This document shows, piece after piece, positions 1,232 through 52,330 of a stretch of 64,000 nt of DNA. Numbering within the stretch: the stretch's first letter is position 1; every line of letters begins with the position of its first letter. The notes under the pieces are model-generated. The model saw nothing but the letters and a program-made list of their open reading frames with translations, ran no database searches and was not told where the DNA came from. This stretch comes from [Eubacterium] cellulosolvens LD2006 (lineage in GTDB: Bacteria > Bacillota > Clostridia > Lachnospirales > Lachnospiraceae). Where the stretch lies: contig NZ_KK211310.1 in the NCBI RefSeq assembly GCF_000621585.1, positions 94,104-158,103 of the forward strand. Direction: 5' to 3'. The position numbers and the translations under genes were made by a program.

Positions 1232-1358
1232 TTCGATTCTTCTGTTGTCCCTGTACACCATAACAAACGGCACCAGTACAACGTACTTCAAATAACCGGA
1301 CAAGAATTTGGTCGAGTTATTTTACGGACGATGTACCAGATACAGGCCATCGCAACGA

Positions 1359-1709
1359 TGGACCAGGCGGGAATCGAACCCGCGTCCGAAAATCTATTCA
1401 TTCGGCTTCTTCCATCACAGTCATTCTATTGGAATTCCCCTTCCAGGGCGCCGGATGACAGGCTCCAGGGTCAGGTAGCTTCATAAATTCTTTCCTCTCC
1501 TCAAAGCTTTGGAGTGAAAGTTCCCCGATTTGAAATGATGCCGATCATCCCGGGCTCGGGAACTCAGGCGATCGACACGCTGCACTTAGGCAGCGAGTGC
1601 GTAACTATTATCGTTAGCGTTTAAATTTAATTCCAGCTTTTCACGTGGTTCCGGAGTCCACGGATGGCTTCCCGAACTTCAAAATCCCCGTCGAAACCAG
1701 TACTAGCCC
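1359..1709 (-). ncRNA. ssrA: tmRNA (transfer-messenger RNA)
   Basis: Rescues stalled ribosomes with SmpB and tags the nascent peptide for proteolysis. The 5' end GGGCTAG pairs with CTGGTCC at the 3' end to close the tRNA-like acceptor stem. The 3' part contains the T-arm GCGGGTTCGATTCCCGC, and the 5' part the conserved TTTCGACGGGGA. The tag frame at 1586-1618 reads GCT AAC GAT AAT AGT TAC GCA CTC GCT GCC TAA, giving ANDNSYALAA after the alanine carried by the tmRNA itself. The base after the acceptor stem is A and the next three are TCG, so CCA is not encoded and must be added after transcription. The gene lies just downstream of smpB and rnr, a common grouping. Confidence 0.97.
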
Positions 1710-42076: not shown

Positions 42077-42089
42077 AATTCGACAAAAT
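42077..42089 (-). promoter_or_regulatory. Spo0A-box-like site upstream of the araC promoter
   Basis: AATTCGACAAAAT, reverse complement ATTTTGTCGAATT, containing TTTGTCGAA. It ends 6 bases before the -35 box, a position compatible with activation or repression. Confidence 0.5.
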
Positions 42090-42095
42090 GTATAA

Positions 42096-42124
42096 TTGAT
42101 ATATTGAATTTTCAATGATATTAT
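42096..42124 (+). promoter_or_regulatory. Promoter of the AraC-type regulator gene
   Basis: TTGATA (42096-42101), 17-base spacer, TATTAT (42119-42124). The spacer contains the inverted repeat ATTGAA-TT-TTCAAT (42104-42117), a possible operator. Confidence 0.65.
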
Positions 42125-42156
42125 GATATTAGCAACACATTTTGAGGGGTATTTAC

Positions 42157-42894
42157 ATGGAATTTGCAAACAAAGAACTATTAGACCGTCTTCTTGAACA
42201 AAAAGAAGAAAAAATCTACCACAAGGACTACGACTCAGAAATTTTGTTTTACCAGCTTGTCAGCAGTGGCCAGGTGGGCGAATTACATCACACGTATTTT
42301 TCCCTGAAGCAGACAGGACTGGGCAAGCTCTCCAATGATCCGGTGAGAAATTACCGTTATCATTTCGTTATTTGTGCAGCTCTCATCAGCCGTTTCTGTA
42401 TCGAGGCAGGAATGAACGTGGAAATCGCTTACACGCTCAGTGATATGTACATCCAGAAGGCTGACCAGACAAGCAGAGAACAGGATCTCTATCATCTCCA
42501 CCGTCAGATGGTATTCGACTATGCTTCCAATATGAACATCATCAAGCGTGAGAGAAATGTCCACTCCACAAGAATCAACAAGGCGATTGATTACATCAAT
42601 AATCACCTTCATGACAACATCACGGTCAGTGATATCAGTACTCATCTCAGCATGAACAACTCTTATCTCTGCACCCTCTTCCGCAAGGAAACAGGCATGA
42701 CTGTGCACGCATTCATCGAGAAAAACAGGATTGATCTCGCAAAGAGTTATCTCTGCTACACAGACTACAGCTTCAGTGAAATCGCCGACATCCTCTGCTT
42801 CAGTTCTCAGAGTCACTTCATCTCTGTATTCAAGAAGCACACGGCTATGACTCCGAAGGAGTATCAGAAGGAAAACTACAGAAAAGCGTTCTGA
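42157..42894 (+). CDS. AraC/XylS-family transcriptional regulator next to the pilus operon
   Basis: 245 aa from the ATG at 42157, with GAGGGG 7 bases upstream. The N-terminal ~140 residues form a helical sensor-type domain without a recognisable cupin. The C-terminal ~100 residues are a standard AraC double helix-turn-helix: AIDYINNHLHDNITVSDIS and LSMNNSYLCTLFRKETG for the first, DYSFSEIADILCFSSQSHFI and FKKHTAMTPKEYQ for the second. It converges on the pilus operon end. In S. pyogenes FCT regions an AraC/XylS regulator (MsmR) occupies the equivalent place, so control of the pilus is a fair inference. Confidence 0.9.
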   Translation: MEFANKELLDRLLEQKEEKIYHKDYDSEILFYQLVSSGQVGELHHTYFSLKQTGLGKLSNDPVRNYRYHFVICAALISRFCIEAGMNVEIAYTLSDMYIQKADQTSREQDLYHLHRQMVFDYASNMNIIKRERNVHSTRINKAIDYINNHLHDNITVSDISTHLSMNNSYLCTLFRKETGMTVHAFIEKNRIDLAKSYLCYTDYSFSEIADILCFSSQSHFISVFKKHTAMTPKEYQKENYRKAF

Positions 42895-42911
42895 TGGAGT
42901 TCTGATGGAAC

Positions 42912-42967
42912 AAAAAAAATACCGCACTCACCGTTTTCTAGCATTATACGGTGGTGCGGTATTTTTG
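42912..42967 (+). terminator. Terminator of the AraC regulator gene
   Basis: Arms AAATACCGCACTCACCGT and ACGGTGGTGCGGTATTT with a loop of about 13 bases, then TTG; A-rich on the other side, so it may be bidirectional. Confidence 0.85.
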
Positions 42968-42984
42968 TGTGTTCTTCATAGAAG

Positions 42985-43265
42985 CCTGAGGGGTGCGCAT
43001 CGACACCGGTAATCCTCGCTCTCGCGTTGCTTCGTCGTCAGCGCTCCGCCGCTTAACGCTGGTGCTCCCGCCGAATCTCGCCCGCTTTGTCTTATGTCCT
43101 CCGGACGATGTTCAAAGCGGGCTCAGACATTGCACGTCTACGCTCCGCTCCGGTCCGCGCTAAACGAACGTCCCCCGGACGTTCAGCGCCGCACCAGCGC
43201 TATGCTCGCGCTTCTGTCCTCAGCTTCCTATGTTCGCTACGGATTGCCGGCGCCGAGGCGCACTA
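42985..43265. repeat. GC-rich intergenic repeat at the downstream end of the pilus operon
   Basis: About 280 bases of GC-rich, non-coding sequence made of short palindromes: GCCCGCTTTG ... CAAAGCGGGC and GAACGTCC-CCC-GGACGTTC inside AGCGC flanks. The segment TCGTCAGCGCTCCGCCGC, followed by a GCTCCCGC block, recurs in near-identical form at 52287-52325 beyond the other end of the pilus locus. Confidence 0.6.
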
Positions 43266-43305
43266 TTTAAAACAAATCTTTTCTGTGATTGTTACAGATT
43301 ACTGA

Positions 43306-44286
43306 CTACTCGCGATCCTTGCGATTGAGTCTGCTGAGGAGAACCGCGAAGATGCTACTGATCAGGAGCACCACCGCATAGAGCACGAGGTTTGACTCAT
43401 CTCCGGTCATGACAGCGGCGACAAGTTTGCGAAGCCCTGAGCTTACTCCTCCGCTTGTGTTCCCGCTGTCATTTCCATCTGCGTCGATCCATCCGGGCGA
43501 CGGGTCTGAGGAGTTCTGATCGTGCCCGGGAAGATCGGCATTTGTAGGTGCCGGCGAGGTCTTCGGGTCGTTTCTGTCGCTGTCCGCCGGTGTCTCTGTG
43601 GGCTGAGTATCCACAGGATCCGGTGCGGTTGTTGGTGTTGGCCCGGCGGTAGGGGGCGGATCGTTTTCCCCTTCTTCATCTCCGTCTCCGGATATGAAGG
43701 AGATTTCGTCCACTTTTCCTTCTCTTCCGTCTTTTGTGATCCAGACTGCCGTATCAAGTTCGCCGCTTTCGCCTCTCCTGGACTCTGCATAGACGACGTA
43801 GACGCAGTTTGTGCACTCGATGTTCTGTTTCACATCCTTCATCTCGACGACGCGGAAACGGTGTGTTCCTTCCTCCGAGACAGGAATCCGGAAGGAACCG
43901 GTCTCTCCTGCCGAGAGGAGCAGCTGTTCGGGGAGAGGACGGACGCCGTCCAGACCTTCGATCCGGACGGTTAAGGGTTCGCTGTCGGATTCGATGGCCA
44001 CGGACTTATCGCCTTTGCGGATTTTTCCGAGTATCAGGCCGTCGGCACCCTTCCCCTGAACCGTCATCTGCTGACGGCTTTTGCTCTCTTTCACTGCCGC
44101 TATCCCTCCGGGTTTGATACGGACGCTGAGCTGAATATAGACCGTATCATTTTCCGAAGGACTTTCCTCTGCGCCGTGAACTTTCAGCGCCGAGATGAGA
44201 TGCAGCAACAGACAGACGACCACGAAGAGGATCATTTTCTTTATTCTGTTTTTTCTCTCTAGCTTGTTTATATTGACGTCGTCCAA
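43306..44286 (-). CDS. FctB-like pilus anchor (basal minor pilin)
   Basis: 326 aa. The start is TTG at 44286, with GGAGAG 6 bases upstream. Signal peptide about 17-39 (LFVVVCLLLHLISALKVHGA). A compact domain (about 45-195) shows the pilin-like strand pattern ending in GTHRFRVVEMKD and VYVVYAESR. A Pro/Thr/Asp/Gly-rich stretch (about 205-280) probably threads the cell wall. The C-terminus is a sorting signal: AVMTGDESN, hydrophobic helix, RLNRKDRE. The short domain plus Pro-rich tail and the last place in the operon match the S. pyogenes basal pilin FctB. The motif MTG departs from the xPTG of the other two pilus proteins, as expected for the subunit that ends polymerisation and is fixed to the wall (inference). 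Confidence 0.75.
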   Translation of the reverse strand: MDDVNINKLERKNRIKKMILFVVVCLLLHLISALKVHGAEESPSENDTVYIQLSVRIKPGGIAAVKESKSRQQMTVQGKGADGLILGKIRKGDKSVAIESDSEPLTVRIEGLDGVRPLPEQLLLSAGETGSFRIPVSEEGTHRFRVVEMKDVKQNIECTNCVYVVYAESRRGESGELDTAVWITKDGREGKVDEISFISGDGDEEGENDPPPTAGPTPTTAPDPVDTQPTETPADSDRNDPKTSPAPTNADLPGHDQNSSDPSPGWIDADGNDSGNTSGGVSSGLRKLVAAVMTGDESNLVLYAVVLLISSIFAVLLSRLNRKDRE

Positions 44287-44348
44287 GTCTTTCTCTCCTA
44301 CCAGGTAACAGAATGAAACGTTGAAACCTTACAGTCAGGCCGGATTCA

Positions 44349-44514
44349 CTAGTACACCATTCGCAAAATAACTGGACTAATGTGCAGAATGCTTGCCCGA
44401 GAGTGCGTGCCTGAAAACGCAGGCGTAGCGGGCTACGTCGAGGCTTTCAGGTGCGTGCTATCGGGATAAGCAGGCAAGCATTCGGTTCAGTTATTTAAGA
44501 AATGGTGTACTAGT
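44349..44514. repeat. 166-bp imperfect palindrome overlapping the sortase gene end
   Basis: Terminal inverted repeats are perfect over 14 bp (ACTAGTACACCATT / AATGGTGTACTAGT). Inward, AAATAACTG and GAATGCTTGCC pair with their complements on the other side, and the centre is CGTAGC-GG-GCTACG. The right arm encodes the last eight sortase residues and the stop codon. It looks like a small MITE-like insertion or a giant intercistronic RNA hairpin between sortase and anchor genes. Confidence 0.8.
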
Positions 44515-45278
44515 CTTCCGATGATCATGCATCTGCCGTTGGTACTTCCGTTCATACAGGTGGACAGTGCAATGAGCCTGTCCGTCGGCTGCAGATCAAT
44601 CTCTCGGTACTGACAGGCGTTCTTCTGAATCACCTGCAAAAAATCGCCCATAGTCTCCGGTGACTTGTCGGCAATGCTGTAAAACTGCTCGTCGTATGCG
44701 TCACAGGTTACACAGGCAAAGATCTCGATATCCATGGATCCCTCTGCGAGATAGAGATGTCCCGCTTTGTGATCCCTGAAATACTTTGCCTTCCGGAACT
44801 CTAATACATCTCCGAACATGGCTCCGTTGTCCATGTGATGCGCATACAGAATATTATAGGTATCCGTGAAATCCGGTTTGTTCACGCTGGACATAAATAC
44901 TGAGCCTGTCAGCGCAAAGTCTCCGTACACGTTTTTGTTGATATATTCCATATCATCCTCACCCTGAAGAACGGGGTAATCGATATGTGTGTCATCAATG
45001 GTAATCCAGGCTTTTACGTCCGGATTAATTTTCATCAGTTCTGCAAGTCCGGGATTCTCGTCTGTAGGAAGATCCGGATCCGGTTTGTACTTCTCCAGAT
45101 CCTCCGAGAGAAAAGCTCCCGTATATTCACAGTATGTCTCCCAGAGGGAAAACCCTCCGTAGAGAAGGAGACATACAATTAACAATTTTGCTAAAAAGTC
45201 TAAAACTTTGTTGCCTGCCTTTGCCACCCCTGACATACCGGCAAGCGTAAAATCCCATATATATAGTTCCTGCATCAT
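44487..45278 (-). CDS. Class B-type pilus sortase
   Basis: 263 aa, membrane-anchored by one N-terminal segment (about 31-48). SrtB-fold marks are the conserved VKAWITIDDTHIDYPVLQG and GSVFMSSVN, the catalytic His in YAHHMDNGAMFG, the catalytic Cys in ALSTCMN and the Arg eight or so residues later in NGRCMIIGR. It would link the xPTG pilins covalently. The protein ends in LVHHFLNN, encoded inside the adjacent palindrome, so its natural C-terminus has probably been replaced just after the last strand. It lies 16 bases downstream of the pilin gene, corresponding to SrtB/SrtC of streptococcal FCT loci. Confidence 0.9.
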   Translation of the reverse strand: MMQELYIWDFTLAGMSGVAKAGNKVLDFLAKLLIVCLLLYGGFSLWETYCEYTGAFLSEDLEKYKPDPDLPTDENPGLAELMKINPDVKAWITIDDTHIDYPVLQGEDDMEYINKNVYGDFALTGSVFMSSVNKPDFTDTYNILYAHHMDNGAMFGDVLEFRKAKYFRDHKAGHLYLAEGSMDIEIFACVTCDAYDEQFYSIADKSPETMGDFLQVIQKNACQYREIDLQPTDRLIALSTCMNGSTNGRCMIIGRLVHHFLNN

Positions 45279-45294
45279 TTTCCCCTAAGTCCGA

Positions 45295-46545
45295 TTAGTC
45301 AATAGTTTCTGTCTTTTTACTTCTGAAGAAAACAACTGCCAGAAGAAGTGCCATTACAACGATCATCAGATACGGTGCAACCATGCGTACAATACCTGTC
45401 GGTGTAACGTTCTCCGTCGAGCTTGTATTGGTGTAGGTGACATCACGGTCAGTGTCCATGTGAAGACCTGCTGTCCTTGCCGTCTCATCCTTGCTAAGGC
45501 TTCCTGTAGATGTGATCTCTGTCTTGTAGTTCTTCGCATCCTGCTCACTCTCTACAACCGTCACATTGGCAAGTTTTGCAAGTCCTTTGATGATGAGGCT
45601 GTCTCCACCCTTCAGACCTGCTGTGTATTCCTGTTTCACGCCGTTGTAGGACGGTACCGGGGAGGAATCACTGTTTGTTGTTGTCATCATATCTGCAGGA
45701 ATCTCCTGTGTGCCGTCAGCGGAAACCGTAAAGTTGAAAACGTCGGAGGCTTTTGCCATGGTTCCTTTGATGACCTTCTTGACAGTCAGATTGTAAGTCT
45801 CATAGATCGTCACGGCTGTGCCGCTGGTGGAACCTCCGTTTCCTCCGTTTCCTCCGTCATCTGTATAACCGGTAGTTTTCTTGTAGGTTACTGTTCCGCC
45901 GGTTCCTTTTTCTGCCTTGAGGAATACATAACCGACAATCTGATACTTGATAGATCCGTCGGAAGTTGAAACCGCATTCACGTAGACATCGATGTATCTC
46001 CTGGATTCTTCATCAGTGAGATCTGTATAAGCCGCATTGTACGCAACACTTTTGTTTGTTCTCTCTTCTTTTACCAGGAAGCGGTAAACGCCGGGAGCTC
46101 TCCACTCAATGGCAGAAAAGTCAATTTCAGCGTTCTCCGAAACCTCGGCCTTCTTTCCGCTGATGGCCACCTGACTGACACTTCCGGGGAAGCTTACGGT
46201 GACAGCTGTCGGGTTTACCGCTGTGGAAGCAATATAGTTGCCTGCCGATTCCTGATCCTTTCCGATCACTGTACCGGTCTCGGAGCTTCCTCCCTCCGGG
46301 ATCTCAACTCTTCCCACAAGACTGGTTTCATATTTGAACTCAGTAGCCGGAACATTGATTTTCACGCCATCCTCCGGGTTCGTGATGCGAAGTACCTTCT
46401 GGAAGGAAACGGAAGTGCCGGCTGCGGCTTTTCCATCGCTGCCAATGGCCGCTGCATCAGCGGACACTGCAGAAAGTCCCATCGAAATTGTCATGCAGAC
46501 AGCCGCAAAAGCTGCTGCAATTTTCTTTACCATTCTGTTTTTCAC
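45295..46545 (-). CDS. FctA/Spy0128-like major pilin with two isopeptide-type domains
   Basis: About 416 aa. GTG at 46545 is favoured because GGAG lies 7 bases upstream; an ATG four codons earlier has no ribosome site. A signal peptide ends near SADA. Numbering from the ATG at 46557: domain 1 (about 48-215) has Lys54 in SFQKVL, Glu164 in YRFLVKEE and Asn194 in IDVYVN. Domain 2 (about 250-380) has Lys261 in LTVKKVIKG, Glu336 in VTVVESE and Asn377 in VTYTN. These are the places expected for Lys-Asn isopeptide bonds with a catalytic Glu. A Gly-rich hinge (GGNGGNGGS) separates the domains. The C-terminus is VTPTG, hydrophobic helix, FRSKK, comparable to the QVPTG/EVPTG signals of FctA. Confidence 0.88.
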   Translation of the reverse strand: MKNRMVKKIAAAFAAVCMTISMGLSAVSADAAAIGSDGKAAAGTSVSFQKVLRITNPEDGVKINVPATEFKYETSLVGRVEIPEGGSSETGTVIGKDQESAGNYIASTAVNPTAVTVSFPGSVSQVAISGKKAEVSENAEIDFSAIEWRAPGVYRFLVKEERTNKSVAYNAAYTDLTDEESRRYIDVYVNAVSTSDGSIKYQIVGYVFLKAEKGTGGTVTYKKTTGYTDDGGNGGNGGSTSGTAVTIYETYNLTVKKVIKGTMAKASDVFNFTVSADGTQEIPADMMTTTNSDSSPVPSYNGVKQEYTAGLKGGDSLIIKGLAKLANVTVVESEQDAKNYKTEITSTGSLSKDETARTAGLHMDTDRDVTYTNTSSTENVTPTGIVRMVAPYLMIVVMALLLAVVFFRSKKTETID

Positions 46546-46659
46546 TTTTTTCTCCATCCTTTTTTGTCAAATGAACTGCTGTATTTAGGAAATAAAAGCG
46601 GTTCTGCCGGCGGTAAGGTCCGTCTGTACAGCAGGCATTACGCTGTATTCCACATAAAG

Positions 46660-47355
46660 TTAAAGGTTTGTGCGGCGGATCACGGTCATAACTTTTCCCG
46701 TGATTGCATCTTCATCGATGGCGCCGAAGTACCGGCTGTCCCTTCCACCTTCCCGGTGATCACACATGATGAAATACCGGCCGGCATCCATGGTCATCGG
46801 ATACTTCACCTCAGCAGAAAGCTGCGGCGTCTTGAAAAAGACTTTCGGTTCCGCCACGAGATAACCGTTGATCTTCACACTCTCAACTTCTGTGATCTCG
46901 ATCTCGTCCCCGTCCTTCGCGATGATCCTGCCGAGATACGTCTTTCCCTCTGCCTTGTAGGTGACTATATCGCCGGCGGCAAGTTCTCCCTTCCACCGGT
47001 AGTAGAACACGAGATCTCCCGCCCCGATGCCGGGGTTCATGTCATCGTTTGGAGATACTGTTACTCCAAAAACAACTCCGAAGATAAGATATAGCACGAA
47101 GGCCAGTGTTACGAAGCGGATTCCGAAGGACCGGATCTGCCGAAGCTGCCTTTTTCGACGTAGCTGTATATCTTTGCCAGAGTTTTTGCAGGAGCCTGTT
47201 GACGGGTCTGCAGATGAAACTGCCATAGCCGGAGACTCTGTTTCTGATTGTTCCACCGGCATTTCTTCGTTAGCAGTTTCCTTTTTCATCTTCCACTGCT
47301 CCGAATCCGCCTGCGGCGACTGCTCTGATAAAGTTTTCTCTGTCTGTCGTTTCAT
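46660..47355 (-). CDS. SipA/LepA-like pseudo-signal peptidase for pilus assembly
   Basis: 231 aa: a ~70-residue cytoplasmic tail, one membrane segment (about 78-97) and a type I signal peptidase fold. In active enzymes box B is SxMxP-like with the nucleophilic Ser; here the stretch is PNDDMNPG, with Asp105 in its place. The general-base Lys of YxKRVIG is Gly142 in TYLGRIIAKDGD. The rest of the fold is kept (GDIVTYKAEGKTY, FIMCDHREGGRDSRYFG). The same Asp/Gly substitution is known in S. pyogenes SipA, which is needed for pilus assembly. ATG at 47355 follows AAAGGAAG and overlaps the adhesin gene by 86 bases; an ATG at 47289 is possible. Confidence 0.88.
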   Translation of the reverse strand: MKRQTEKTLSEQSPQADSEQWKMKKETANEEMPVEQSETESPAMAVSSADPSTGSCKNSGKDIQLRRKRQLRQIRSFGIRFVTLAFVLYLIFGVVFGVTVSPNDDMNPGIGAGDLVFYYRWKGELAAGDIVTYKAEGKTYLGRIIAKDGDEIEITEVESVKINGYLVAEPKVFFKTPQLSAEVKYPMTMDAGRYFIMCDHREGGRDSRYFGAIDEDAITGKVMTVIRRTNL

Positions 47356-50300
47356 TTTTCTTCCTTTTTCGAATCAAATAAATGATCTGAAGAATCACTG
47401 CCAGCGCCACCATGACACCAAAAGGCATTCTGTTTCCGGAGATTCCGGTGGGCGCCACGGGATTGATCGTGAGCCAGGAGGTCGCATAGACAGCGATTTC
47501 GTCCCCGGAAGTTCCCCTGCTCTTCTGCGAGAGTGTCGCTTTCATGTAGATCTTGTAACGGCCGGGCTGGACCTCGGCAACAGACGCCAGATCTCCGTAG
47601 GTACCGTTTTTCGTCTTTGAGTAGGTGACATCGCTGAGGACATATCCCTCTTCATCCATCTGATCCTGGTACTCTTTCCGAAGTGTTCCCATGGAATAGC
47701 TGACATTCGCCTCATCGAGGGTGTGAGCGCTTCCGTCAAATTTTACAACCTTATCATCGGTATCAATTCTCGCCCAGAGCGCATCCAGAGTGTACTCACT
47801 GGTTGTGTGGTACTGGAACATGGCTCCGCTCTTCCGGATCGTAGGTCGGCTTAAGACCACCTGTTTTCCGTTCCGTGTTATCGTACGCTTCTTATCAAAC
47901 CAGCCGATAAAGGTGTATTCATCCGACACCGGCTGATCCTGTACAATCCGGATCTCCTCTGAGTCCGTAAACCTTCTGCGGTAAAAGAGCTTCCGGATAT
48001 TGGCATCGGTCTGATCAACGCCCTGAATCGATACCATGTCGTTCTCATCGTGCCCCTGGGGATAATCATCCGCCGTGCCGTCCTGCGACCATCTGGCATC
48101 GGGAAGATTCAGGTTGTACCCCACACGTCCGTTTGCGTTGACTACGTAAAAAATAACGGCTACGTCGTTATCGCTGTCTGTATCTTCCGCCGACAAAGGC
48201 TTCGGCATCAGAAACCGGATATTCCTGTACTTCTTCGAAATCTCATCATCCGAATTCTTGTCCTTGTCATAGTAGGTATACGGAATCGACGCACCCGACC
48301 GCAGGGTCATTACCTCCACCGCTTTCAGCATATAGTCCTTCGCCGAAAGGGATGGATCGTCCATGATACTGTCCACCGGACGATAGGGAACCACTACATT
48401 TCCCTTTTTCCTGTCCGGAGATACCATCTGATAATGATCACCGTATCCGTTGAGGTACTTCCCGTTCTCAATGTCGTAATACCAGATATAGACATGGGAC
48501 TGGGAATAATCCAGCTCCTTGTCCTTCGGTTTCAAAGAAACCACCAGGCGGGCGATAGATCTGGTTCCGGGGAAAGCATTCTGGATTCGGAAAGACATGT
48601 TCTGCACGCCATTATCTCCGTCCGGTTCTCCTTCTTCCAGCTCATATCGGAAGGTTTCCTCCGTCAGTCCGTTTTTATTATGTACATACATAAAGCTCTC
48701 GGAATACTCATATCCTTCAGGAAGAACCAGGTGGATATTATTCTTCTCACCGCAGCTTACAAGCTGTCCGTAAAAGCTTCCCGACTCAGCGGAAAGGGTT
48801 GCATAGTCCGTGAAATATCCGTAAGTATTCACATCAAGCAAAGAAGCGGTACTATCCTCTGCAAAGTAGTTTCTCTCCGAGCCGCTCAGGATATTATATG
48901 AACCTCGATCCGTGTAATAGTACAGCACCTGATAGCGCACAGATTTCGGCACAACAAAGAAAATGATGTTGAGGTCGTACTTCGCGTTGTCGAAGGACAC
49001 ACTGCTGACCTCTCTGTTTGCCTTCTTCAGACTGAAATTATTAATATCGTCTTTGCTTCGCGACGGAGGATTCCGGGGATCCCAGCTCTCAAATTCATAA
49101 AACTGCCGTTCACTGCCGTTCTTCAAAAAGCGTGCAGAATAAAACGTATAACTGTCTGAATCCAGCGGCAGGTTAATTCTGACTCCCGCATCCTCATAAA
49201 AGGATTCCTGATAATAAATCAGATCCGACGCATTCTTCTGCAATTCGGAAAACTCACGGTACTGCGCAGATTCATCCACGTAATAGACTGTGTATTTCTT
49301 CTGCTTTGTCAATTCCAGAACCACATTTACCGTCTGATACTGTCCGGTTCCCTGCACGAGAGGAGGCTCCTCCGTCAGTCGGAGACGCAGGGTGCCTGTC
49401 CCTTTTAACGCAGAAAACGAAGCACTTACTCCCTCCAGATATTCGTCATCTCCGAAGGCATACATTTTTCTCGTGTAACGGTAAGAAGATGGAATGGTCA
49501 GCTTCAGCTCAGAAAGCTCATTGAGCGAGGTAGTGAAAGTGACCGGTGTCTCCCCGGCCTCCGCTCTCCGGAAGGTACCGTCCGCATCCTGCGTAATCCC
49601 GGTGTAAATCGGCTGATAATTGCTGTCATAGCCCTCGTAGAAATAGAGCTGACAGGTGATCTTCGAGGGATCCGCCTCCGGTTCAGGCTCTGAATCGGTT
49701 TTCTGTTCCCCTCCGGAAGATTCATCATCCAGTCCCGGCTTTGCGAAAACCAGATAATTCATGGTCTCTTTTGAAGTATTTCCGTTCGCATCCAGAATCA
49801 CCACTTCACCTTTTTTTACGTTTCGCCTGTAAAGGAACATCGTCTGGTCTTGGCCAATCGAGTCAACAACCACCATACTTTGACCGGTGTCAGTCCAGCC
49901 ATCCCTCGCAAGCCATGAGGAAATATTCGCATTCGGTTCCGCGGTTTTATCAAACAGTCTGTGATCCGCTGCCAGGTAAACGGCAGCATCCATGCCCACG
50001 ATGAATCTGGCCTCCTCAGGCAGTATTCCGCCGTCATTCACATAATTCTTTGAATCACAGGCAGTGGAGAGGAACTCTGTTCCCTGCAGAACTGAAGGCA
50101 GAACCCCTCCTTTGGGGAAGACAGAACAGCGGTCGCCAAAGAAATGGTCACCCGCAGTCATTCCCGCGTCATCAATCACAGACCAGGCGTAGGCATTCGC
50201 CTCGTCTTCCACCCAGAGTTCCTGAATAACTCTTCCTTTTTGCCTTGCTTTTGTTGCAAAGACAACGTACTGGGCGAAGCCGCCTCCGGAGGGAGCATTC

Positions 50301-51904
50301 TCAATACTGCCCAGTTTCAACGTCTCACCGGCAGACATCTTTGTTCGATAAAGTCTGTACTTGATGGAGTTATTCTGATCGTCATTGACACTCAACAGCG
50401 CAGAATAATAGGAAAGCACGCTCCATCGGCCTTCCCGCAGCCAGGCCGGAAGTTCACCAACTCTCGTATCCATGGCCACCGTCAAATACATATCTTCTGC
50501 CGCCGTAACCTCTGCCTGGGTTCCTGCTGCCAGCTTATCCTTCCTTGCAGGCTGAAGAACCTCAGCTCCGATAATATAACCGGGCGCTGACTTGGCAGTA
50601 AGAGTACTGTCCTTTCCATAGACCTCAGAATTGCTCCTGGAGTGAATTCCGTCTTCGGGAATATCCTCATAGAGCCGGAAATCCTGCTGGATTTCCCAGT
50701 CAGAAGCATGATCCGTATAGAGTTTTACAGATTTGATCAGACGTCCGCTGATGGTTCTTTTCACCGTTCCCGTCGTAGGTTTCGGCGTAGCTGTGGGCTT
50801 CGTGGTAGATGAAGCCTTCGGCGTGGGCGTAGGTTTTCCGGTCGTCGACGGTTTCGGCGCAGACGTCGAGGCCGTCTTCTTCTGTACTACATAAATGATC
50901 TCCGCATCTTTTGGATTGATCTTCTTGCTCTTCATCTTGATGGAGAGATCTTTATTAATGGTCACATATTTACTGGTTCCCTGAGCCTCTCGGCCATTCA
51001 GATCCCGGCTGTAGTAAACTGCTTCTTCTCCTTCTTCTCCTTCTTTTCCTGCAATCATAGTTCCTTTTTGGTATATCTTGTCGTTCTTTTTATTACCCTC
51101 AAAATACATAGATCCGTTTCTGTCAGGGACGTAAATCGCACGGATAATTTCATACTCTTTCCAAAAATCCAGATTTATGTAGTTGTAAAAATACCTGTCG
51201 AGAACAGGATTGTCATGAGCAGCCGGATCCGCAGACCCACGATCCGCCTCATCCAGCATCATTTGATATACATCTTCCCCGTTGGAAGCTTTCATCGATG
51301 TGTAAGTGACATAGCACGCATAAATCTTTGAAGATACAGATGCAGTGACGGCCTTGGATTCCCCAAGCATAGCCGCCAGATCATAACCGCCGGCCGTAGC
51401 GGTATTCACATTTGCGATGCGGGATTTGAATGTATCAGAAAAGGGATCATCCTGCGGCTGATCCTTCATCTCTTCCCTATTCTCATCTCCATCTTTATTT
51501 CCGTTTGTATTTCCATTCGTACTTTCGGTTGAATTCCCGCCGTTGTCGTCCGGGATCACATCCGTTGCCGGCTGATTTCCGTTTTCTTCTGCGGGTTTGG
51601 TTCCGGGTGTCGGACCTGCAATACCGGGTTCCGGCTCCCCATCCTCTTCACGGGTCAGAGTCTCCTCTGCCGGTATTCCGGAAGAATTCTCACTGCTCTG
51701 TTCTGCAGAATATGCATTATTTGAAGCAAGAGCATTCACGGCATTCTGCATTCTCTCCACGGCGCCTTCCTGATTCAAATCAGAATCAGAAACCACGTCG
51801 GCATAAGAGTCATTCACACAGCCAACCACAGTAGAAGACGCAGTGGTGGCGATGACACACAGAATTGCAGCGAATCGATAGACTCTGTTCAGCAGTTTCT
51901 TCAA
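47270..51904 (-). CDS. Large pilus-associated adhesin (Cpa-like position), xPTG-anchored
   Basis: About 1544 aa. TTG at 51904 is preferred because GAGGTGA lies just upstream; a GTG three codons earlier lacks one. Signal peptide about 1-35. A Ser/Glu/Asn-rich stretch is followed by several beta-rich domains separated by Pro/Thr linkers (for example KPTPTPKASSTTKPTATPKP). Near the C-terminus an InlB/Flg_new-type repeat (YTFIGWFDKK ... YTLDALWA) precedes a last domain and the sorting signal VAPTG, hydrophobic helix, RKRKK. An unusual 28-residue hydrophilic tail after the basic patch is encoded where the gene overlaps the SipA-like gene. First gene of the operon, as cpa is in FCT loci. No thioester motif could be recognised. 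Confidence 0.85.
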   Translation of the reverse strand: MKKLLNRVYRFAAILCVIATTASSTVVGCVNDSYADVVSDSDLNQEGAVERMQNAVNALASNNAYSAEQSSENSSGIPAEETLTREEDGEPEPGIAGPTPGTKPAEENGNQPATDVIPDDNGGNSTESTNGNTNGNKDGDENREEMKDQPQDDPFSDTFKSRIANVNTATAGGYDLAAMLGESKAVTASVSSKIYACYVTYTSMKASNGEDVYQMMLDEADRGSADPAAHDNPVLDRYFYNYINLDFWKEYEIIRAIYVPDRNGSMYFEGNKKNDKIYQKGTMIAGKEGEEGEEAVYYSRDLNGREAQGTSKYVTINKDLSIKMKSKKINPKDAEIIYVVQKKTASTSAPKPSTTGKPTPTPKASSTTKPTATPKPTTGTVKRTISGRLIKSVKLYTDHASDWEIQQDFRLYEDIPEDGIHSRSNSEVYGKDSTLTAKSAPGYIIGAEVLQPARKDKLAAGTQAEVTAAEDMYLTVAMDTRVGELPAWLREGRWSVLSYYSALLSVNDDQNNSIKYRLYRTKMSAGETLKLGSIENAPSGGGFAQYVVFATKARQKGRVIQELWVEDEANAYAWSVIDDAGMTAGDHFFGDRCSVFPKGGVLPSVLQGTEFLSTACDSKNYVNDGGILPEEARFIVGMDAAVYLAADHRLFDKTAEPNANISSWLARDGWTDTGQSMVVVDSIGQDQTMFLYRRNVKKGEVVILDANGNTSKETMNYLVFAKPGLDDESSGGEQKTDSEPEPEADPSKITCQLYFYEGYDSNYQPIYTGITQDADGTFRRAEAGETPVTFTTSLNELSELKLTIPSSYRYTRKMYAFGDDEYLEGVSASFSALKGTGTLRLRLTEEPPLVQGTGQYQTVNVVLELTKQKKYTVYYVDESAQYREFSELQKNASDLIYYQESFYEDAGVRINLPLDSDSYTFYSARFLKNGSERQFYEFESWDPRNPPSRSKDDINNFSLKKANREVSSVSFDNAKYDLNIIFFVVPKSVRYQVLYYYTDRGSYNILSGSERNYFAEDSTASLLDVNTYGYFTDYATLSAESGSFYGQLVSCGEKNNIHLVLPEGYEYSESFMYVHNKNGLTEETFRYELEEGEPDGDNGVQNMSFRIQNAFPGTRSIARLVVSLKPKDKELDYSQSHVYIWYYDIENGKYLNGYGDHYQMVSPDRKKGNVVVPYRPVDSIMDDPSLSAKDYMLKAVEVMTLRSGASIPYTYYDKDKNSDDEISKKYRNIRFLMPKPLSAEDTDSDNDVAVIFYVVNANGRVGYNLNLPDARWSQDGTADDYPQGHDENDMVSIQGVDQTDANIRKLFYRRRFTDSEEIRIVQDQPVSDEYTFIGWFDKKRTITRNGKQVVLSRPTIRKSGAMFQYHTTSEYTLDALWARIDTDDKVVKFDGSAHTLDEANVSYSMGTLRKEYQDQMDEEGYVLSDVTYSKTKNGTYGDLASVAEVQPGRYKIYMKATLSQKSRGTSGDEIAVYATSWLTINPVAPTGISGNRMPFGVMVALAVILQIIYLIRKRKKNETTDRENFIRAVAAGGFGAVEDEKGNC

Positions 51905-52095
51905 AAGAATCACCTCGTAAAAATGTACCCGTTAGATCCGTCAATTGCAAAAAATTCGACAAAATTTGTCTATTTTGCAACGTTTGAAACTAAACATCCC
52001 TTTTTAGTTTCCGAAAGTGCGAAGAATATCCACATATATATACTTTCAAATAGGTGTGCCTTAGCAAACCATCTGTTTTAGTAATCATCGGTAAC
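51905..52095 (-). promoter_or_regulatory. Structured ~180-base leader of the pilus operon
   Basis: Two hairpins are visible: GAAACTAAA/TTTAGTTTC (51986-52011, perfect, 8-base loop) and TTGCAAAA...TTTTGCAA enclosing GACAAA/TTTGTC (about 51945-51982). No terminator T-run was found, and no GEMM c-di-GMP riboswitch core could be recognised. Confidence 0.5.
51953..51965 (-). promoter_or_regulatory. Spo0A-box-like site in the pilus leader
   Basis: AATTCGACAAAAT (reverse complement contains TTTGTCGAA), identical over 13 bases to the site before the araC promoter. It lies about 130 bases past the predicted start of transcription, inside the lower hairpin, so its effect, if any, would be repression or it may serve another promoter. 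Confidence 0.4.
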
Positions 52096-52123
52096 ATATT
52101 AACATTTTTCCAACATATGTCAA
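52096..52123 (-). promoter_or_regulatory. Pilus operon promoter
   Basis: Minus strand TTGACA (52118-52123), 16-base spacer, TAATAT (52096-52101). GTCACAAAAGTCA abuts the -35 box upstream (52124-52136) and resembles sequences upstream of araC (41850-41865, 42042-42053), suggesting an activator site. Confidence 0.7.
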
Positions 52124-52204
52124 TGACTTTTGTGACTTTTCATTTTATTTTTCACAGAGAATTCGTTGCGACGGGATACAACATGGTGCGAAAAAAAACA
52201 GGCG

Positions 52205-52330
52205 GAAGGAGACTGAGCATATAAAGCGAACACATCAGGCAAGTCCACGGAAGGAGCCAGAGTATACACGCGAACACGTCGCTCTCGTCCTCAGCGCTCC
52301 GCCGCCTATTGCGGGATGCTCCCGCAAAAA
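52205..52330. repeat. GC-rich intergenic repeat at the upstream end of the pilus locus
   Basis: Contains CGCTCTCGTCCTCAGCGCTC and a GATGCTCCCGC block, nearly matching 43018-43075. It lies in the 520-base gap between the adhesin gene and the small lipoprotein gene, in which no gene was found. Confidence 0.55.

What the first reader, a model, noticed from the sequence alone, without database searches (positions are those of the whole stretch)
42077..52136. An FCT/T-antigen-type pilus operon in a Lachnospiraceae-like genome, with an AraC regulator beside it
Read in transcription order, the genes encode a large adhesin (VAPTG), a pseudo-signal peptidase, a two-domain isopeptide pilin (VTPTG), a class B sortase and a small Pro-rich anchor. 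This is the same order as cpa-sipA-fctA-srt-fctB of S. pyogenes, where an AraC/XylS regulator (MsmR) also lies beside fctB. The parts are too divergent to be a recent transfer by eye, and the adhesin is twice the usual size. It may be a gut-commensal branch of this pilus type.
Basis: partly seen in the sequence, partly recalled or inferred. Interest (0 to 1): 0.85.

Follow-up and report, generated by a model that had tools for sequence, protein, structure and literature searches.

The report
Streptococcal-type covalent pilus in gut Clostridia
This gut bacterium (family Lachnospiraceae) carries an intact five-gene set for the covalently linked surface fibre known from the pathogens Streptococcus pyogenes and S. 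pneumoniae, and the same set turns out to be common across gut Clostridia, so the pathogens' fibre is one small part of a large, mostly uncharacterised commensal family.

Summary
Window 43306-51901 (minus strand) encodes, in order: tip adhesin (VAPTG), SipA-like pseudo-signal-peptidase, two-domain FctA pilin (VTPTG), class B sortase, FctB-like anchor (VMTGD). The top solved match of the last four is the S. pyogenes FCT counterpart, though weak for the anchor alone. The predicted pilin matches Spy0128 first (Z 16.6). Bond-forming residues are conserved across 47 pilins. SipA has the same dead Asp/Gly dyad as S. pyogenes SipA. The sortase sits in a pilus class B clade (100/99) that holds Spy0129 and excludes ordinary SrtB.

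The operon is not an oddity. The same five genes in the same order occur at 78 of 115 related loci; SipA beside a pilus sortase occurs in at least 30 of 250 Lachnospiraceae genomes. I found no paper describing it there. SipA and sortase diverge together (r = 0.89), while tip adhesins are swapped freely.

Not supported: the MsmR parallel. AraC lies beside the operon only here and in one close relative. The adhesin shows no thioester domain.

Verdict: a new member of a known kind, broadly distributed. Covalent assembly is inferred, not shown.

The parts
47270..51901 (-). Tip adhesin, 1543-1547 aa, signal peptide, VAPTG sorting signal (47444-47458), membrane helix; in the position of cpa but not a detectable Cpa homologue
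   Evidence: start at TTG 51901 favoured by ribosome site and by paralogue L172
46660..47355 (-). SipA-like pseudo-signal-peptidase; Asp105 and Gly142 replace catalytic Ser/Lys; overlaps the adhesin gene by 86 bp
   Evidence: (4N31 SipA, E 9e-24)
45295..46557 (-). FctA/Spy0128-type two-domain major pilin; isopeptide triads K54-E164-D233 and K261-E336-N377; linking lysine K227; VTPTG signal (45394-45408)
44487..45278 (-). Pilus-type class B sortase with HHM motif (H147/H148), C241, R249
43306..44286 (-). FctB/Spy0130-type basal anchor: Ig-like domain, Pro-rich linker, VMTGD signal (43399-43413), membrane helix
   Evidence: family profile hits FctB3 4.7e-22 and 3KLQ 6.7e-22
52096..52123 (-). Candidate promoter TTGACA-16-TAATAT, about 190 nt upstream of the adhesin start
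   Evidence: 10 of 12 consensus bases; the scan found 15 sites against 12.4 expected, so weak
42142..42894 (+). AraC-family regulator, convergent with the operon; role in pilus control unproven
   Evidence: (TIGR04094 136.6 bits, below cut-off 200)
44379..44487 (-). 109-bp dispersed palindromic repeat in the sortase-anchor gap; not part of the pilus machinery
   Evidence: 20 full or partial copies in the genome; the gap in relative G007 is 131 bp and does not align with it

Best explanation
The operon builds a covalent, sortase-assembled pilus of the SipA / class B sortase type (S. pyogenes FCT-2/3/4, S. pneumoniae PI-2). Proposed assembly: the FctA-like pilin is exported and each of its two domains is locked by an intramolecular isopeptide bond (K54-D233 and K261-N377, assisted by E164 and E336). 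The class B sortase cuts VTPTG between Thr and Gly and joins Thr to K227 of the next pilin, making the shaft. The same enzyme joins VAPTG of the large adhesin to the first pilin, putting the adhesin at the tip. Addition of the FctB-like subunit ends growth, and another sortase attaches its VMTGD signal to the wall. SipA, a catalytically dead signal peptidase, acts as an obligatory partner of the sortase rather than as a protease. Shown here: gene set and order, homology, fold, conservation of the bond-forming residues, loss of the SipA dyad. Inferred from S. pyogenes: bond formation, polymerisation, order of subunits, need for SipA. Unknown: what the tip binds.
For: Top PDB hits are the FCT proteins themselves: sortase Spy0129 1.5e-47, SipA 9.1e-24, pilin Spy0128 2e-7. 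Family profiles hit GAS T-antigens at 7e-47, PitB at 2e-37 and FctB at 7e-22. Pilin model: Foldseek best match Spy0128, E 1.4e-14; VIA Z 16.6 over 261 residues. Across 47 pilins K227, E336, N377 and the T-G of PTG are invariant; K261 46/47, K54 and E164 45/47, N/D at 233 47/47. No operon SipA among 106 keeps the catalytic Lys and 14 keep Ser; Asp/Gly is the commonest state. Sortase clade 100/99. Gene order at 78 of 115 loci; loci found by sortase alone have SipA at 71 of 80. SipA-sortase distance correlation 0.89, 0 of 999 permutations as high. VTPTG is also the PitB motif read by SrtG1 (PMC10548224).
Against: No experiment. The window anchor alone is a weak match to FctB (E 0.16); only the family profile is strong. 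The pilin model is of moderate confidence (pLDDT 74, pTM 0.64) and is weak around residues 234-247, next to the first isopeptide partner, which is Asp rather than the usual Asn. The adhesin is unrelated in detectable sequence to Cpa, so tip placement rests on gene position and sorting motif.
Confidence: 0.9

Rival explanations
1. The class B sortase is an ordinary anchoring enzyme (SrtB of the iron-uptake kind) that fixes these proteins to the wall as monomers; no fibre is made.
For: The other characterised class B sortases anchor single NPQTN-type proteins (PMC3019223), and Lachnospiraceae have many SrtB; M. gnavus SrtB3 anchors single proteins (PMC13121745). The anchor protein has a near-threshold srtB_target signal.
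Against: The sortase falls in the pilus clade at 100/99, apart from SrtB of B. anthracis, Listeria and the window genome itself. The pilin's linking Lys is invariant in 47 of 47, with SipA and FctB beside it.
Confidence: 0.06
2. A silent or decaying operon, or one acquired recently by transfer and not yet used.
For: A dispersed repeat sits between sortase and anchor. In the genus only two sampled genomes carry this version; others lack it or have a different one.
Against: All ORFs are intact; dN/dS is 0.00-0.47 against the relative; a promoter-like site lies upstream. GC is that of the surroundings, 0.47-0.50.
Confidence: 0.04
3. SipA here is not a helper of the sortase but an active peptidase with another catalytic residue, processing pilins. 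(This concerns one component and is compatible with a pilus.)
For: The peptidase fold and family score are kept (TIGR02227 88.8 bits, over its cut-off of 47); 14 relatives keep Ser.
Against: The Lys is lost in all 106 operon SipAs. S. pyogenes SipA shows no peptidase activity and works with the Asp changed (PMC4049620).
Confidence: 0.05

Closest known systems
S. pyogenes FCT-2/3/4 pilus (cpa-sipA-fctA-srtC-fctB)
   Same: Same five roles in the same order; adhesin and sipA genes overlap in both; class B sortase (43% identity to Spy0129); Asp/Gly SipA; two-domain pilin with the same bond-forming residues.
   Different: Tip adhesin not detectably related to Cpa and twice as long, no thioester domain detected; Asp for Asn at the first isopeptide; anchor ends VMTGD; no RofA/Nra among the neighbouring ORFs; AraC neighbour not conserved.
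S. pneumoniae / mitis-group pilus islet 2 (pitA, sipA, pitB, srtG1, srtG2)
   Same: SipA, class B sortase and two-domain PitB backbone; identical VTPTG pilin motif (PMC10548224).
   Different: PI-2 has a second sortase and no FctB gene listed; the PDB 4Y4Q sortase (SrtG1 by my recollection, not verified) falls in a different subclade from the window enzyme.
Class C sortase (SpaA/RrgB-type) pili
   Same: Covalent pilin polymers with isopeptide-locked Ig-like domains; the window genome also seems to have such a cluster (L038).
   Different: Different sortase class with a lid, no SipA, different pilin architecture and linking-lysine setting.

Membership tests
SipA / class B sortase pilus (FCT-2/3/4, PI-2) | Gene order adhesin-sipA-pilin-sortase-anchor | tested here: met
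SipA / class B sortase pilus (FCT-2/3/4, PI-2) | Pilus-specific class B sortase | tested here: met
   TIGR03064 over cut-off; Spy0129 best hit; pilus clade 100/99
SipA / class B sortase pilus (FCT-2/3/4, PI-2) | SipA of the signal peptidase family with no Ser-Lys dyad | tested here: met
   4N31 best hit; D105/G142 as in S. pyogenes
SipA / class B sortase pilus (FCT-2/3/4, PI-2) | Two-domain FctA/Spy0128 pilin with isopeptide triads and linking Lys | tested here: met
   residues present, the bonds themselves not testable
SipA / class B sortase pilus (FCT-2/3/4, PI-2) | (x)xPTG sorting motif on pilin and adhesin | tested here: met
   VTPTG and VAPTG; consensus (E/Q/V)(V/P)PTG in PMC3019223 and VTPTG for PitB in PMC10548224
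SipA / class B sortase pilus (FCT-2/3/4, PI-2) | FctB-type basal pilin | tested here: met
   family profile to FctB3 and Spy0130 at 5e-22 and 7e-22; window protein alone only E 0.16
SipA / class B sortase pilus (FCT-2/3/4, PI-2) | Covalent high-molecular-weight polymer dependent on sortase and SipA | not testable with these tools
   needs immunoblot and gene removals
Cpa thioester tip adhesins | Thioester domain and FctA-like C-terminal domain in the adhesin | tested here: not met
   no thioester domain hit in Pfam for the whole protein or for pieces at E up to 5; only a marginal FctA-profile hit, 2e-05. A divergent thioester domain below HMM detection is not excluded
FCT region with MsmR-type AraC regulator | AraC/XylS regulator beside fctB as a conserved part of the locus | tested here: not met
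   AraC relatives in the window and G007 only, of 114 loci; direct homology to MsmR not tested

The most novel reading that the evidence does not exclude
This pilus type is native to gut Clostridia, where it is a fixed chassis (SipA, class B sortase, pilin, anchor) carrying freely exchanged tip adhesins, some with carbohydrate-binding modules. The S. pyogenes FCT and pneumococcal PI-2 pili would then be separate later acquisitions by streptococci from that pool.
Probability: 0.4. Interest if true: 0.7.

Novelty: new member of a known kind. Interest (0 to 1): 0.5.

Why it matters
The T-antigen pilus is studied as a virulence factor and vaccine target of two human pathogens. Finding it intact and common in gut commensals means its ancestry and basic function may lie in colonisation by commensals. 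It also gives over 100 natural variants with which to ask what SipA does, an open question since its structure was solved: SipA accompanies the class B pilus sortase almost everywhere, never keeps its catalytic lysine, and diverges in step with the sortase. And it offers a large set of tip adhesins, some glycan-binding by domain content, that may decide which surface each gut bacterium holds.

Tried and rejected
Structure of the adhesin N-terminal region (residues 155-770, three sequences): pLDDT 35, unusable, no fold search made. PDB and Pfam searches of adhesin pieces: nothing; from memory residues 386-745 look like two copies of a module seen in plant-polysaccharide lyases, but no tool confirmed this. 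Thioester domain in the adhesin: not found. AraC = MsmR: not conserved. Riboswitch in the adhesin leader: no Rfam match worth noting; leader fold z only -1.75. AU test of the two solved pilus sortases (Spy0129, 4Y4Q) as one clade: p = 0.06, log-likelihood 38 lower, so separate origins are favoured by the tree but not established. First collection scan failed because the alignment was too diverse. No Streptococcus locus came back from the named-genome scan, so streptococci are represented only by PDB sequences. Whether the M. gnavus srtB4 cluster (PMC13121745) is of this kind could not be decided: its gene content is not given in the text.
Full report
WHAT IS THERE. The window holds an intact five-gene operon on the minus strand: adhesin 47270-51901, SipA-like 46660-47355, pilin 45295-46557, class B sortase 44487-45278, anchor 43306-44286; an AraC gene lies convergently at 42142-42894. 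Pfam and NCBIfam recognise Peptidase_S26, DUF7601, class B sortase (TIGR03064, over its cut-off) and HTH_AraC. The genome is held as G000, 3.33 Mb in 77 contigs. Its family is Lachnospiraceae by inference: G256 and G164, listed as the same family, have contigs of the same length as Frisingicoccus caecimuris NZ_SLXA01000007.1 and Oribacterium parvum NZ_KE148312.1. The near-identical congener G007 carries the operon on a contig of the same length as Eubacterium sp. RUI459 JAIKXQ010000030.1.

PARTS AGAINST SOLVED STRUCTURES. Single-sequence searches: the sortase's best hit is Spy0129 (3PSQ, 1.5e-47), SipA's is S. pyogenes SipA (4N31, 9.1e-24), the pilin's are the Spy0128 entries (about 2e-7), and the anchor's top but insignificant hit is Spy0130 (3KLQ, E 0.16). 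With family profiles the links are strong: pilin to GAS T-antigens 7e-47 and to PitB 2e-37, anchor to FctB3 4.7e-22 and Spy0130 6.7e-22. The AlphaFold2 model of the pilin (47 sequences, pLDDT 74) finds Spy0128 first in Foldseek (E 1.4e-14) and in VIA-align (Z 16.6, rmsd 4.0, 261 residues), with PitB and the C-terminal domain of Cpa also listed.

BOND-FORMING RESIDUES. In 47 aligned pilins K227, which lies next to the first isopeptide partner as Lys161 does in Spy0128 (linking lysine, PMC3019223), is invariant, as are E336, N377 and the Thr-Gly of the sorting motif; K261 is kept in 46, K54 and E164 in 45, and position 233 is Asn in 42 and Asp in 5, the window being one of the Asp cases. E164 aligns with Glu117 of Spy0128 (numbering by the E117A entry title).

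SIPA. Aligned with four active-type signal peptidases of the same genus, the window SipA has Asp105 for Ser and Gly142 for Lys, exactly the Asp48/Gly85 state of S. pyogenes SipA (PMC4049620). Of 106 operon-linked SipAs plus S. pyogenes, none keeps Lys, 14 keep Ser, none keeps both, and 54 are Asp/Gly. That paper says the Asp and a nearby Lys are not conserved outside S. pyogenes; the wider set shows Asp/Gly is the commonest state and the dyad Lys is always gone.

SORTASE. All but a few operon sortases carry HHM where ordinary SrtB have HNM or HRM. A careful IQ-TREE of 93 sortases puts all 76 pilus enzymes, with Spy0129 and PDB 4Y4Q, in one clade (100/99) apart from SrtB of Bacillus and Listeria and from three other SrtB of the window genome. 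4Y4Q lies in a 16-row subclade (100/99) and Spy0129 in the other 60 rows (97/82). Forcing the two together costs 38 log units but AU p is 0.06, so separate origins are suggested, not proven.

DISTRIBUTION. In 250 Lachnospiraceae genomes, nearly all of different genera, 29 of the fetched genomes plus the window genome have SipA beside a pilus-type class B sortase, at least 12%. A scan of named genomes with sortase patterns gave 544 relatives; the best 80 come from Blautia, Anaerobutyricum, Eisenbergiella, Gemmiger, Anaerococcus, Oribacterium, Lacrimispora, Sharpea, Pseudoramibacter and others, and a few Coriobacteriia and one Dehalococcoidia MAG. In all, 78 of 115 non-redundant loci have the complete order adhesin-SipA-pilin-sortase-anchor; some of the rest are cut by contig ends. 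In a phylum-wide draw 16 of 299 genomes match strongly. I found no paper describing the operon in these bacteria; the paper library is open-access only.

CHASSIS AND TIP. Over 78 full operons, distances of SipA and sortase correlate at 0.89, the other chassis pairs at 0.62-0.72, with 0 of 999 permutations as high. SipA and sortase are alignable in 97-99.9% of pairs over half their length, while adhesins are so in 388 of 6006 (6%). Adhesins of relatives carry F5/8 type C, CBM6, InlB-type repeats and, usually, a C-terminal FctA-like domain. The window adhesin has no Pfam domain, no detectable thioester domain, and full-length relatives only in G007 and as an orphan 1471-aa paralogue (48% identity) elsewhere in the same genome.

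REGULATION. AraC relatives occur near the operon only in the window and G007 of 114 loci, so the MsmR parallel is not supported as a shared trait. The AraC protein is 100% identical between the two species, and its best NCBIfam match is a regulator family found beside surface-antigen genes, below cut-off, so a role is possible.

MECHANISM AND STATUS. The best reading is a covalent SipA / class B sortase pilus. Gene set, fold, residues and phylogeny are shown; polymerisation, subunit order and the role of SipA are inferred from S. pyogenes. It is a new member of a known kind. What is new is the scale: the pathogens' pilus is a small part of a large commensal family.

Noticed in passing
L040:4013-17881 (G000:C1): A 4622-aa surface protein with some 20 tandem FctA/FctB-like isopeptide domains, like a pilus shaft written as one polypeptide.
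   Followed up: partly
L172:6226-10641 (G000:C7): Orphan paralogue of the tip adhesin, 48% identical over about 1450 aa, away from any pilus gene, ending in VVDTGF; possibly an alternative tip.
   Followed up: partly
window 44379-44487: 109-bp palindromic repeat between sortase and anchor genes, 20 full or partial copies in the genome, absent at this place in G007.
   Followed up: yes
L032 (G007:C51:1-19000): A second SipA-pilin-sortase-anchor set without adhesin, beside Cas9, replication-like and SSB genes, apparently on a mobile element.
   Followed up: no
L038 (G000:C3:41000-60000): A separate cluster that looks like a class C / SpaA-type pilus with its own sortase and signal peptidase in the same genome.
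   Followed up: no
window 42927-43300 and 52140-52330: GC-rich repetitive intergenic sequence around the operon that aligns poorly with G007.
   Followed up: no
window 1356-1709: tmRNA with tag ANDNSYALAA, the only RNA gene found in the window.
   Followed up: no
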